IMG/VR virus record: IMGVR_UViG_3300038856_000043
Coordinates: 1 to 41,186 of that record
Length of the DNA: 41,186 bases
Reading direction: 5' to 3' (one strand)
Source: a virus
Under the pieces are notes generated by a model. That model had not been told where the DNA came from, did no database searches, and saw only the letters and a program-made list of their open reading frames with translations. Positions 30,489 to 33,208 of this stretch are shown here, one piece after another. The stretch's first letter is position 1, and the number at the start of each line of letters is the position of its first letter. The translations under genes and the position numbers were made by a program.

Positions 30489-30661
30489 GGCTTAAAAAGG
30501 GTTGTTAGTTGTTCTGCGATTTCTACCTCGTAGGCTAATTTCGATATTCTCCTTTCAGTTTCGTTCCATTCCGTTGTGAGGGAATCGATTTGTTTGTCCA
30601 ATCGGTCTAGCTTCGCCTCTGCGCTTGCTAACTTTCGTTTTAAGGTTTCTAGTTTGTGCAT
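30485..30661 (-). CDS. Small coiled-coil protein of 58 aa
   Basis: MHKLETLKRKLASAEAKLDR..., with heptads through residue 50 and a C-terminal LTTLFKP. It overlaps the upstream gene's end by 13 bases and the YopX start by four. A dimeric helper or regulator is possible; function unknown. Confidence 0.55.
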   Translation of the reverse strand: MHKLETLKRKLASAEAKLDRLDKQIDSLTTEWNETERRISKLAYEVEIAEQLTTLFKP

Positions 30662-31089
30662 AACTCATGTTTTGGGGTTCCGTCTTCCTTGGTTTCAAAT
30701 AAACAAGTGTAGTCCATTACGTTAGGGATGTTGTCTAACTCGCATAGGTATTCTATGACTGCGCAAAGGGCTTTAAATTGAATGTCTTTGTTGTTTGTTA
30801 TTTCACTAGCGTCCCAATCATCAGGCCTCCATTTTTCGTGTCCAGATATTATTTTGTCTGGGTGACAATTTTCAGGAATACGCCCAAACATAAATATCAT
30901 TTCAACCCACATTAATTCTATAGGGCTGTATCCTGTGTCTGTTATAAACCCGTTGTGTTTCCATGAGCTGTCTCCATTACACATATTCCCTACGGCACAT
31001 TTTTTGCAATCCATAGCGTCCAAAGTCCCATTATGAAAAGCGGGATATAGTTTGCTAATTGTTCTGTCAAATCTTTTTGTTGTTTTCAT
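30649..31089 (-). CDS. Cys-rich protein of 146 aa, unknown function
   Basis: N-terminal CKKCAVGNMCNG (about residues 28-39), RPDDWDASE and a helical C-terminal half with ALCAVIEYLCELDNIP. Several Cys suggest a metal or disulfide site. The type is common in Bacteroidota phages and has no defined role. Confidence 0.6.
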   Translation of the reverse strand: MKTTKRFDRTISKLYPAFHNGTLDAMDCKKCAVGNMCNGDSSWKHNGFITDTGYSPIELMWVEMIFMFGRIPENCHPDKIISGHEKWRPDDWDASEITNNKDIQFKALCAVIEYLCELDNIPNVMDYTCLFETKEDGTPKHELCTN

Positions 31090-31264: not shown

Positions 31265-31295
31265 CAAATATACATAACTTTTTGCACCTATGCAA
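31265..31295 (-). promoter_or_regulatory. Early operon promoter (minus strand)
   Basis: On the minus strand, TTG (31295-31293), 20 bases, TATATTTG (31272-31265): a full match to the Bacteroidota primary-sigma consensus. The TTG lies inside the palindrome O1. Drives the genes from 31243 downwards. Confidence 0.8.
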
Positions 31296-31296
31296 A
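31281..31296. promoter_or_regulatory. Operator O1
   Basis: TTTGCA-CCTA-TGCAAA, six-base arms around four bases, covering the -33 TTG of the minus-strand early promoter. Related in core to O2. The plus-strand HTH protein is a plausible ligand. Confidence 0.6.
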
Positions 31297-31303
31297 TAAA
31301 TTA

Positions 31304-31316
31304 GCAAATAATTTGC
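31304..31316. promoter_or_regulatory. Operator O2
   Basis: GCAAAT-A-ATTTGC, six-base arms around one base, overlapping the -33 TTG of the plus-strand promoter. Two operators each placed over one of two divergent promoters is the layout of a Cro/CI-like switch. Confidence 0.6.
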
Positions 31317-31342
31317 ATATATGATTATTTTTAGTACCTTTG
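31313..31342 (+). promoter_or_regulatory. Promoter of the plus-strand regulator and RNA
   Basis: TTG (31313-31315), 19 bases, TACCTTTG (31335-31342): an exact match to TTG-N17-23-TAnnTTTG. The HTH ATG follows 18 bases after the -7 box. Confidence 0.8.
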
Positions 31343-31360
31343 AAGAAATAATACTACGGT

Positions 31361-31615
31361 ATGGAAAGCAAAATTGCCAAAGTTATTGAGCAGAAAATGA
31401 AAGAGAATGATATGTCTATGTATCAGCTTATGCAAAAATCCGGCATAGCCCAAAGACAAATAGATGCTGTTTTACAACGCAAAGAAAAACAAGGCAAAAC
31501 ATACACCGTTCACACCCTTAGACGTGTCCTGGATGCGTTTGGAATGACAGGATTAACCATAGATATGAACGGAATGCCAGTATCAATAAAATTTAAAAAA
31601 AATAAAGTTCTTTGA
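31361..31615 (+). CDS. HTH regulator (Xre/Cro-like)
   Basis: 84 aa. MESKIAKVIEQKMKENDMSMYQLMQKSGIAQRQIDAVLQRKEKQGK is a helix-turn-helix of the Xre type (recognition helix about residues 28-40), followed by a helical stretch (VHTLRRVLDAFGMTGLTIDM) and a basic tail. No integrase is present, so it may act in lytic timing rather than lysogeny. It probably binds the O1/O2 palindromes just upstream. Its stop codon is contained in the GTTCTTTGACATT box that starts the downstream RNA. Confidence 0.75.
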   Translation: MESKIAKVIEQKMKENDMSMYQLMQKSGIAQRQIDAVLQRKEKQGKTYTVHTLRRVLDAFGMTGLTIDMNGMPVSIKFKKNKVL

Positions 31616-31619
31616 CATT
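31605..31619 (+). promoter_or_regulatory. boxA-like element at the head of the RNA
   Basis: The sequence AAGTTCTTTGACATT resembles the GTTCTTTGACAT motif found in rRNA leaders of Bacteroidota, which serves as boxA for antitermination complexes. Antitermination would help RNA polymerase cross the following ~760 bases of strong hairpins. Resemblance is seen; function is inferred. Confidence 0.4.
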
Positions 31620-32378
31620 ATTAAAAGGGTGCTTATGCTCTTTAGGATAATCCTAGCAATAGGAATAAAGTGGTCTTTGGCTGCGCAGCTTCGGCTGTCC
31701 GTGTAAGCAAATGACAAACGGGATTGAGGGAGGCTACCGCCTGTGATATTCCACCGTCTTAGGTTAAGGATGGTTGAGGTTAATACCAATAGGAAAAGTC
31801 ATAGGGTGCGGTGAAAAAGCCTGATAAGCAACAATCCGCATTCAGTATTAGGGGGTTAAATCTCCTGAAATACCATGATTCATCAAAATCATAGTGGGGA
31901 GTTGTTCTCTAAACCAGTCAAAAGCTGGCAAGAAAGCAAACCGGTGGACGCTTCCCGCAGAGTAAAACTACAACCTACCCGTAGGTAAATACGGACTGAT
32001 TTGTGGATTCAGAAAGCAAAAGTTCCATCGGGCTTATGGCGAAAATGAGGTTATCCTTCTGCAATATGAAGGCATTTAATTTCTCGCAAGGAAATTTTAT
32101 GAGGCTGTAAAATTAGGTCGTCTGGTTAGTGGTCGCACTATTCACCCCGAAAGGGACAGGGCTGAAATGAAAGTTTATATACCCATAAGCAGTAGATCGC
32201 AGCACTTTACGCTGTCCTCATGTCGTTTACTTGCAGAAATGTAAGTGTGTGTAATTTTCGGAAACGGACAAAAACAGCGACAAATATGCTCATCACTCAG
32301 GCAAAAAAAATAACGATACTACTTCTAGGTAGTGCTTGGTTTGGTTAGAGGGGGCGTTGGGGTGATGCCCCCTTTTTT
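31616..32378 (+). ncRNA. Large structured non-coding RNA (~760 nt), class unknown
   Basis: Between two plus-strand genes lie about 760 bases without a sensible reading frame on the plus strand. At least ten local hairpins are seen, several capped by stable tetraloops: UCCUA-GCAA-UAGGA (31651-31664), GCAGC-UUCG-GCUGU (31685-31698), UGCGG...CCGCA (31807-31840), ACCUA-CCCG-UAGGU (31973-31986), AAUUUC...GAAAUU (32078-32096), CCC-GAAA-GGG (32146-32155), ACUUGC...GUAAGU (32229-32246), ACUAC...GUAGU (32318-32333). It ends in a strong terminator. It is not recognisable as tmRNA, RNase P, 6S, SRP, or a group I or II intron. Large ornate RNAs such as GOLLD and ROOL are known from phages; membership cannot be decided by eye. 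Confidence 0.7.
32349..32378 (+). terminator. Intrinsic terminator of the large RNA
   Basis: The 8-bp stem GGGGGCGU (32350-32357) pairs with AUGCCCCC (32365-32372), with a G-U pair, around a UGGGGUG loop; six U follow (32373-32378). It is the strongest intrinsic terminator in the window. Confidence 0.85.
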
Positions 32379-32389
32379 AAAAGATGATT

Positions 32390-32674
32390 ATGGAAACGAA
32401 TACTTTATCAAAGGTTATTTCTGTTGTTGAACTGGCAATAAAAAAATTGCACAAACAAAGCCGTTATTACGGGCTGTTAATTTATGTCCCTAAATATCTT
32501 TTTGATATGATGGAAAATGATTTTAGGGAGCTGATGCCCGCCCATATTGAGAAAAGCGGCCAAATGACCCTGTTCGGATGCAAAATCATGTATAATTATC
32601 AAGACAACATAGTTGTATCTCATCCCGATATACATAAAATCGAAGCAATAATCATTGAAATAAGTGAACTATGA
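32390..32674 (+). CDS. Unknown protein of 94 aa downstream of the large RNA
   Basis: Start at the ATG at 32390 (METNTLSKVISVV); an in-frame ATG two codons earlier is possible. Composition is mixed helical/strand with LIYVPKYLFDMMENDFREL and MTLFGCKIMYNYQDNIVVSHPDI. No family recognised. It follows the terminator by 12 bases, so it depends on read-through or its own promoter, which I cannot see. Confidence 0.55.
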   Translation: METNTLSKVISVVELAIKKLHKQSRYYGLLIYVPKYLFDMMENDFRELMPAHIEKSGQMTLFGCKIMYNYQDNIVVSHPDIHKIEAIIIEISEL

Positions 32675-32708
32675 AAATAGAAAGGGAATCTAATCTTGAA
32701 TTGGTGAA

Positions 32709-32795
32709 ATGTTAGAAATCTGCGTTGGGGTAATAATAATTTTGTTAATCATTCAAATAGGATGGCTTGTTAGGATATTTAAAAAAGATAATTAA
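32709..32795 (+). CDS. Tiny membrane peptide of 28 aa
   Basis: MLEICVGVIIILLIIQIGWL then VRIFKKDN: one hydrophobic segment and a basic end. It is linked to the previous gene by a 14-codon frame (32671-32715) whose ATG overlaps the previous stop and which runs over this ATG; that frame may only couple translation. Confidence 0.4.
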   Translation: MLEICVGVIIILLIIQIGWLVRIFKKDN

Positions 32796-32814
32796 CCAAT
32801 TTAAGCGAATAATT

Positions 32815-33030
32815 ATGGATGAAAGTAGAAATGAAATAAAAAAATCCCTCTATAAAGAACGACCTATAGCCGTGTTTACTGGAATGACGGCTGACGGCAA
32901 AAGGGGCAAGTACACAACAACCCTTAAAAGTAAAATAAGCGTTGATTTTTTGATTCCAGAGAATGAAATAATTGGGTTCAGCAATGAAATGCCAGCTCAA
33001 CTTTTAATTAGATGGATGGTAACCAAATAA
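32815..33030 (+). CDS. Unknown protein of 71 aa
   Basis: Start at the ATG at 32815 (MDESRNEIKKSL), chosen because the longer frame would overlap the preceding peptide. Contains AVFTGMTADGKRGKYTTTL and FLIPENEIIGFSNEM. No motif recognised. Plus strand, in the regulator/RNA cluster. Confidence 0.5.
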   Translation: MDESRNEIKKSLYKERPIAVFTGMTADGKRGKYTTTLKSKISVDFLIPENEIIGFSNEMPAQLLIRWMVTK

Positions 33031-33040
33031 AGTAGAGACT

Positions 33041-33208
33041 ATGGATGAACAAAATATACTTGTTGGCAGAATCGCAATGTTACTTGATTTGCTGGGTCAA
33101 GATGGTAGAATCAGGAAAACTGATCTACAAACAGAAGCCGAAAAATTAATGCGGGAATTGCTAATATTAAAAGGCGTTTCAGAAGAAAATTTAAAACAAC
33201 TAACATGA
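33041..33208 (+). CDS. Small acidic helical protein of 55 aa
   Basis: MDEQNILVGRIAMLLDLLGQ..., predicted fully helical. Starts 10 bases after the previous stop, and its stop overlaps an ATG of a nine-codon frame I do not count. Last supported gene of the plus-strand cluster, convergent with the spanin-like gene. Confidence 0.5.
   Translation: MDEQNILVGRIAMLLDLLGQDGRIRKTDLQTEAEKLMRELLILKGVSEENLKQLT

What the first reader, a model, noticed from the sequence alone, without database searches (positions are those of the whole stretch)
31616..32378. A ~760-nt structured phage RNA of unknown class
The region has no coding frame on the sense strand, at least ten local hairpins with GNRA, UUCG and other short loops, a boxA-like head and the strongest terminator of the window. 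It lies in a plus-strand cluster next to an HTH regulator. Size and ornateness recall GOLLD or ROOL RNAs of phages, which form multimers, but I do not recognise those signatures. It may be a new class restricted to Bacteroidota phages.
Basis: partly seen in the sequence, partly recalled or inferred. Interest (0 to 1): 0.88.

Follow-up and report, generated by a model that had tools for sequence, protein, structure and literature searches.

The report
Divergent GOLLD RNA in Bacteroidota phage
The 760-base stretch is not a new class of RNA: it is a divergent copy of GOLLD, a known giant phage RNA that builds hollow RNA-only cages, here in a Bacteroidota phage and just below the standard detection cut-off.

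Summary
In detail: 31616-32378 is non-coding on the + strand, highly structured, and ends in a strong terminator. The class is known. With Rfam's default cut-off nothing matches. Without it, 31894-32303 aligns end to end with RF02032 GOLLD (74.9 bits, E=2e-19; gathering score 150). Relatives found with GOLLD motifs form a divergent branch; the members in the search scored 45-102 bits, under Rfam's cut-off. A 3'-domain model built without the window finds it at E=9e-20. A 5'-head model built without the window finds 31620-31675 at E=4.5e-10, and also finds the heads of Rfam-passing GOLLDs, so both GOLLD domains are present. In the branch alignment 40 of 49 consensus pairs show compensatory changes. 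The phage is Bacteroidota-like. Less expected: an rRNA-type boxA immediately 5' of the RNA (31607-31617), shared with four relatives; a Bacteroidota-type promoter upstream of a probably cotranscribed HTH gene; a shortened 5' domain; and no tRNA genes, whereas most relatives sit in tRNA islands. By homology to the solved 14-mer it probably forms an RNA cage; that step is inferred. New member of a known kind.

The parts
31312..31342 (+). Bacteroidota-type promoter TTTG-N19-TACCTTTG upstream of the HTH gene; likely promoter of the HTH-GOLLD transcript
   Evidence: pattern match, 4 in window against 2.6 expected; inferred from position
31265..31296 (-). second match of the same promoter pattern, facing the other way; with the repeats at 31281-31323 it forms a possible divergent control region
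   Evidence: inference
31361..31615 (+). Cro/C1-type HTH protein, 84 aa
   Evidence: Pfam HTH_26 6.6e-5
31607..31617 (+). boxA-like antitermination signal GTTCTTTGACA overlapping the HTH stop codon
   Evidence: only match in window, 0.16 expected; same kind of motif ahead of the GOLLD head in L123, L129, L155, L158; rRNA leaders of Chryseobacterium and Phocaeicola carry GATCATTGACAT / GATCTTTGAAAG
31620..31675 (+). GOLLD 5' head: first hairpin plus CCUAGCAAUAGG hairpin and AAUAAAG
   Evidence: covariance model R3 built without the window, 38.7 bits, E=4.5e-10
31620..31893 (+). GOLLD 5' domain (cap domain in the solved structure), about 40-120 nt shorter than in relatives
   Evidence: head to UCAAAAG 279 nt against 317-402
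31894..32303 (+). GOLLD 3' domain (ring domain), whole RF02032 model 1-416
   Evidence: cmscan 74.9 bits, E=2e-19; R2 built without the window, 85.4 bits, E=9.2e-20
31914..31928 (+). hairpin with conserved UCAAAAG loop
31960..32012 (+). variable linker (inside the cage in the solved structure); no tRNA here
   Evidence: variable region of the alignment; no tRNA
32013..32023 (+). conserved AAAGCAAAAGU
32032..32039 (+). 5' strand of long-range helix GCUUAUGG, pairs with 32183-32190
   Evidence: pairs in the Rfam structure; own-partner duplexes stronger than swapped over the whole set, 0 of 20000 permutations
32183..32190 (+). 3' strand of that helix, CCAUAAGC
32045..32050 (+). 5' strand of long-range helix AUGAGG, pairs with 32216-32221
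   Evidence: covarying pairs
32216..32221 (+). 3' strand CCUCAU
32083..32091 (+). conserved CUCGCAAGG
32127..32141 (+). hairpin UAGUG-GUCG-CACUA at the likely place of L21a (self-complementary dinucleotide CG; GC in most relatives)
   Evidence: comparison with PMC12286853, assignment tentative
32296..32300 (+). conserved CUCAG at the 3' end of the GOLLD model; 3' hairpin closed by UGC/GCA
32347..32378 (+). intrinsic terminator

Best explanation
The element is a GOLLD RNA of about 730-760 nt, from a branch that mostly falls below Rfam's cut-off, in a Bacteroidota-type tailed phage. Shown by comparison: a 5' head and 5' domain, a linker, and a complete 3' domain with conserved helices. Inferred: it is transcribed from a TTTG/TAnnTTTG promoter together with an HTH regulator (probably autoregulated); a boxA at the gene's stop codon recruits host NusB/S10 so that RNA polymerase reads through the long untranslated, structured RNA despite Rho; the RNA ends at 32378. 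It folds into cap and ring domains that assemble into an RNA-only cage like the solved GOLLD 14-mer, enclosing the linker and perhaps a cargo. What the cage does for the phage is not known for any GOLLD. Separate estimates: is a GOLLD RNA 0.97; multimerises into a cage 0.75; boxA acts as antiterminator 0.5.
For: End-to-end RF02032 alignment, E=2e-19. Independent models without the window: 3' domain E=9.2e-20, 5' head E=4.5e-10 at the expected place. The 5'-head model also hits Rfam-passing GOLLDs L010, L019, L025, L050. 40 of 49 consensus pairs have compensatory changes; 6 column pairs pass a phylogeny-aware null at E<=0.05, all standard pairs; own-partner duplexes beat swapped ones. Published: GOLLD forms a D7 14-mer with a 5' cap and 3' ring (PMC12286853). 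boxA. Bacteroidota phage: terminase 56% to Flavobacterium phages, portal 42% to Nonlabens phage.
Against: The Rfam score is half the curated cut-off, and 3'-domain identity to the relatives is only about 42-55%. The 5' domain is shortened, so a 14-mer is not assured. The second hairpin of the pair at 32127-32156 has a GAAA loop instead of the usual GCAA. boxA is absent from most relatives (5 of 29 have it), including the clade member L192. The promoter pattern is weak evidence (4 found, 2.6 expected). No expression data.
Confidence: 0.9

Rival explanations
1. A new class of giant RNA confined to Bacteroidota phages that only resembles GOLLD.
For: No Rfam match at the gathering score; low identity to relatives; absent from the phages collection by blastn.
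Against: Both domains are found by models that exclude the window and the 5' head is shared with Rfam-passing GOLLDs.
Confidence: 0.02
2. A decaying GOLLD: once functional, now losing its 5' domain in a small phage without tRNAs.
For: 5' domain about 40-120 nt shorter; no tRNA genes; altered loop.
Against: Long-range helices are intact with the window's own versions of the pairs (AUGAGG/CCUCAU, GCUUAUGG/CCAUAAGC); core motifs, boxA and terminator are kept.
Confidence: 0.08
3. The structure is a long 5' leader or regulatory region of the downstream genes rather than a free RNA.
For: + strand genes follow at 32384.
Against: A strong terminator at 32347-32378 separates them; GOLLD RNAs are described as independent RNAs.
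Confidence: 0.02
4. A ROOL, OLE, HEARO or intron RNA.
For: Size and hairpin density.
Against: cmscan up to E=5 lists only GOLLD as meaningful.
Confidence: 0.005

Closest known systems
GOLLD RNA, Rfam RF02032 (cryo-EM 14-mer in Kretsch et al. 2025, PMC12286853)
   Same: complete 3' domain, 5' head, linker, phage location
   Different: scores below the Rfam cut-off; shorter 5' domain; Bacteroidota phage; no tRNA nearby or in the linker; boxA leader; GUCG loop instead of a GC loop at the L21a-like hairpin
Divergent GOLLD branch found here (L006, L008, L018, L123, L129, L155, L158, L192 and others)
   Same: AAAGCAAAAGU..CUGMAAUAYG..CGCAAG core and 5' head; window groups with L123 (Prevotellaceae MAG), L155, L158, L192, support 0.99
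   Different: most others lie in tRNA arrays, many on larger contigs, some with a tRNA inside the linker
ROOL RNA
   Same: giant phage RNA that forms a cage (PMC12286853)
   Different: unrelated sequence; no match here
rRNA boxA antitermination leaders
   Same: G(A/T)TC(A/T)TTGA motif ahead of a long structured RNA
   Different: here ahead of a phage RNA; function untested

Membership tests
GOLLD (RF02032) | match to the covariance model of the 3' domain | tested here: met
   whole model 1-416, E=2e-19, though 74.9 bits is below the curated 150; related branch members score 45-102
GOLLD (RF02032) | Rfam gathering score of 150 bits (listing threshold, not a structural feature) | tested here: not met
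   74.9 bits; Kretsch et al. used E<=1e-5, which this match passes in the searched stretch
GOLLD (RF02032) | homologous 5' domain | tested here: met
   head found at 31620 by R3, which also hits Rfam-passing GOLLDs; the rest of the 5' domain is only partly alignable
GOLLD (RF02032) | covariation-supported helices | tested here: met
GOLLD (RF02032) | encoded by phage or prophage | tested here: met
   portal, terminase, tape measure, RecT
GOLLD (RF02032) | near tRNA genes or tRNA in the linker (frequent, not obligatory) | tested here: not met
   no tRNA in the 41-kb record
GOLLD (RF02032) | self-assembly into a 14-mer cage | not testable with these tools
   needs mass photometry or cryo-EM
ROOL / OLE / HEARO / introns | match to the Rfam model | tested here: not met
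   no match up to E=5
rRNA-type boxA | boxA sequence at the head of a long untranslated RNA | tested here: met
rRNA-type boxA | binding of NusB/S10 and antitermination | not testable with these tools
   needs a readthrough assay

The most novel reading that the evidence does not exclude
Bacteroidota-phage GOLLDs form a variant with a reduced cap domain that builds a cage of different size or stoichiometry, expressed through an rRNA-type boxA antitermination signal like that of the host, and independent of phage tRNAs.
Probability: 0.25. Interest if true: 0.65.

Novelty: new member of a known kind. Interest (0 to 1): 0.42.

Why it matters
The standard Rfam cut-off hides much of a branch of GOLLD RNAs; 29 loci of it were collected here, including contigs near 400 kb. 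A tRNA-free, short GOLLD in a 41-kb phage argues against any cage function that needs a phage tRNA cargo, and its smaller 5' domain makes it a compact natural test of which parts set cage size. The boxA suggests how phages may transcribe such long untranslated RNAs.

Tried and rejected
A sigma-70 promoter TTGACA-16-TATGCT (31612-31639) was rejected: its start site would lie inside the conserved 5' head, and such matches are at chance level. TGCTCTTTA (31636) as boxA was rejected: relatives have a hairpin arm of other sequence there. Relatives of the flanking ORFs and of RecT in viral contigs: none. blastn of the RNA, and of the RNAs of L155 and L165, against named phages: none. Two cultured relatives, Nonlabens P12024L and Flavobacterium FPSV-S2, lack the RNA by model R1. 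Of 393 genomes sampled from the order of the L123 MAG only that MAG matched, so it is rare in such genomes. Most genome contigs pattern hits (e.g. the Chryseobacterium set) are chance matches without the other motifs. The Rfam family search of whole records by the genome search missed the window at its first look, so negative results of that tool are weak.

Full report
Observation. The region 31616-32378 has no + strand ORF of 50 aa, folds better than shuffles (z = -2.4) and better than its complement, and ends in a 12-bp GC-rich terminator. The window is a whole virus record of 41,186 bases.

Identity. Rfam at gathering scores gives nothing in the window. A permissive scan of the region gives one meaningful match: GOLLD RF02032, model positions 1-416 to window 31894-32303, 74.9 bits, E=2e-19. 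From its length, RF02032 covers the conserved 3' domain of GOLLD; the 5' domain is more variable (PMC12286853). The alignment keeps the recognisable blocks UCAAAAG, AAAGCAAAAGU, CUCGCAAGG, UUACUU..GAAA..AAGUG and CUCAG.

Relatives. A motif pattern found 67 viral contigs. Of 50 records searched with RF02032 (the window's own and 49 of these contigs), 47 matched and 38 passed the cut-off; a low-scoring group (45-102 bits) shares the window's motif CUGMAAUAYG. Further patterns raised this branch to 29 loci, including a contig of a Prevotellaceae MAG, L123. The window groups with L123, L155, L158 and L192 (support 0.99).

Independent tests. A 3'-domain model made without the window finds it as the only hit in the window, 85.4 bits, E=9.2e-20. 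A 56-position 5'-head model made without the window finds 31620-31675, 38.7 bits, E=4.5e-10; the next hit in the window has 16.6 bits. The same head model finds Rfam-passing GOLLDs L010, L019, L025 and L050. So both ends of the window RNA are GOLLD. E-values from these models are rough.

Structure. In a 24-sequence alignment 40 of 49 consensus pairs include compensatory changes. A phylogeny-aware null made by script (Fitch reconstruction, 20 null alignments, G-statistic with average-product correction) leaves 6 of 43,142 column pairs at E<=0.05, all of them standard pairs (the window positions printed there are one too high). A long-range helix that the alignment blurs, GCUUAUGG/CCAUAAGC in the window, was tested without alignment: over the whole set own-partner duplexes are stronger than swapped ones (0 of 20,000 permutations as good), although for the window alone 8 of 18 swapped partners were as good.

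Anatomy and expression. The RNA follows a Cro/C1-type HTH gene. A TTTG-N19-TAnnTTTG promoter lies ahead of that gene (31312-31342), with a second, opposed match at 31265-31296 and operator-like repeats at 31281-31323; the pattern itself is near chance (4 found, 2.6 expected). That this is the Bacteroidota promoter consensus is from general knowledge. GTTCTTTGACA at 31607-31617 is the only such boxA match in the window (0.16 expected). Four relatives have the same kind of motif ahead of the head (L123, L129, L155, L158), and the rRNA leaders of two Bacteroidota genomes carry it too. Its role is inferred from rRNA antitermination.

Phage. Terminase is 56% identical to Flavobacterium phages, the portal 42% to Nonlabens phage P12024L. 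No tRNA is present, whereas most relatives lie in tRNA arrays and several carry a tRNA at or within the linker.

Mechanism. By homology to the solved structure the 3' domains form rings and the 5' domains caps of a cage, with the linker inside. The window's 5' domain is shorter (279 nt from head to UCAAAAG against 317-402), so its stoichiometry is open. The biological role of GOLLD is unknown; its expression rises during phage lysis according to PMC12286853. That paper's main text names no Bacteroidota and no boxA. Conclusion: new member of a known kind, with some variant features.

Noticed in passing
31265-31342: Back-to-back Bacteroidota-type promoter matches with inverted and direct TTTGCA/GCAAAT repeats between the leftward gene at 30649-31089 and the HTH gene; looks like a divergent switch with HTH operators.
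   Followed up: partly
L018, L143, L162, L166, L199: Contigs of about 394-412 kb (jumbo-phage size) carry this GOLLD branch; tRNA genes lie around it, and L143 and L166 also show a tmRNA.
   Followed up: no
L008 10969-11041, L142 12996-13067, L150 2106-2177, L157 4579-4651: Complete tRNA genes inside the GOLLD linker, i.e. where the cage interior would be.
   Followed up: partly
L066, L143, L148, L164, L192: ARAGORN calls tRNA-Pyl (CTA) in these loci, which may be amber suppressor tRNAs and hint at TAG recoding.
   Followed up: no
RF02032: Rfam's gathering score of 150 bits excludes much of this GOLLD branch; automatic annotation will miss it.
   Followed up: yes
32384-33208: Three small + strand ORFs after the terminator with no confident family match and, for the first, no relatives in viral contigs.
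   Followed up: no
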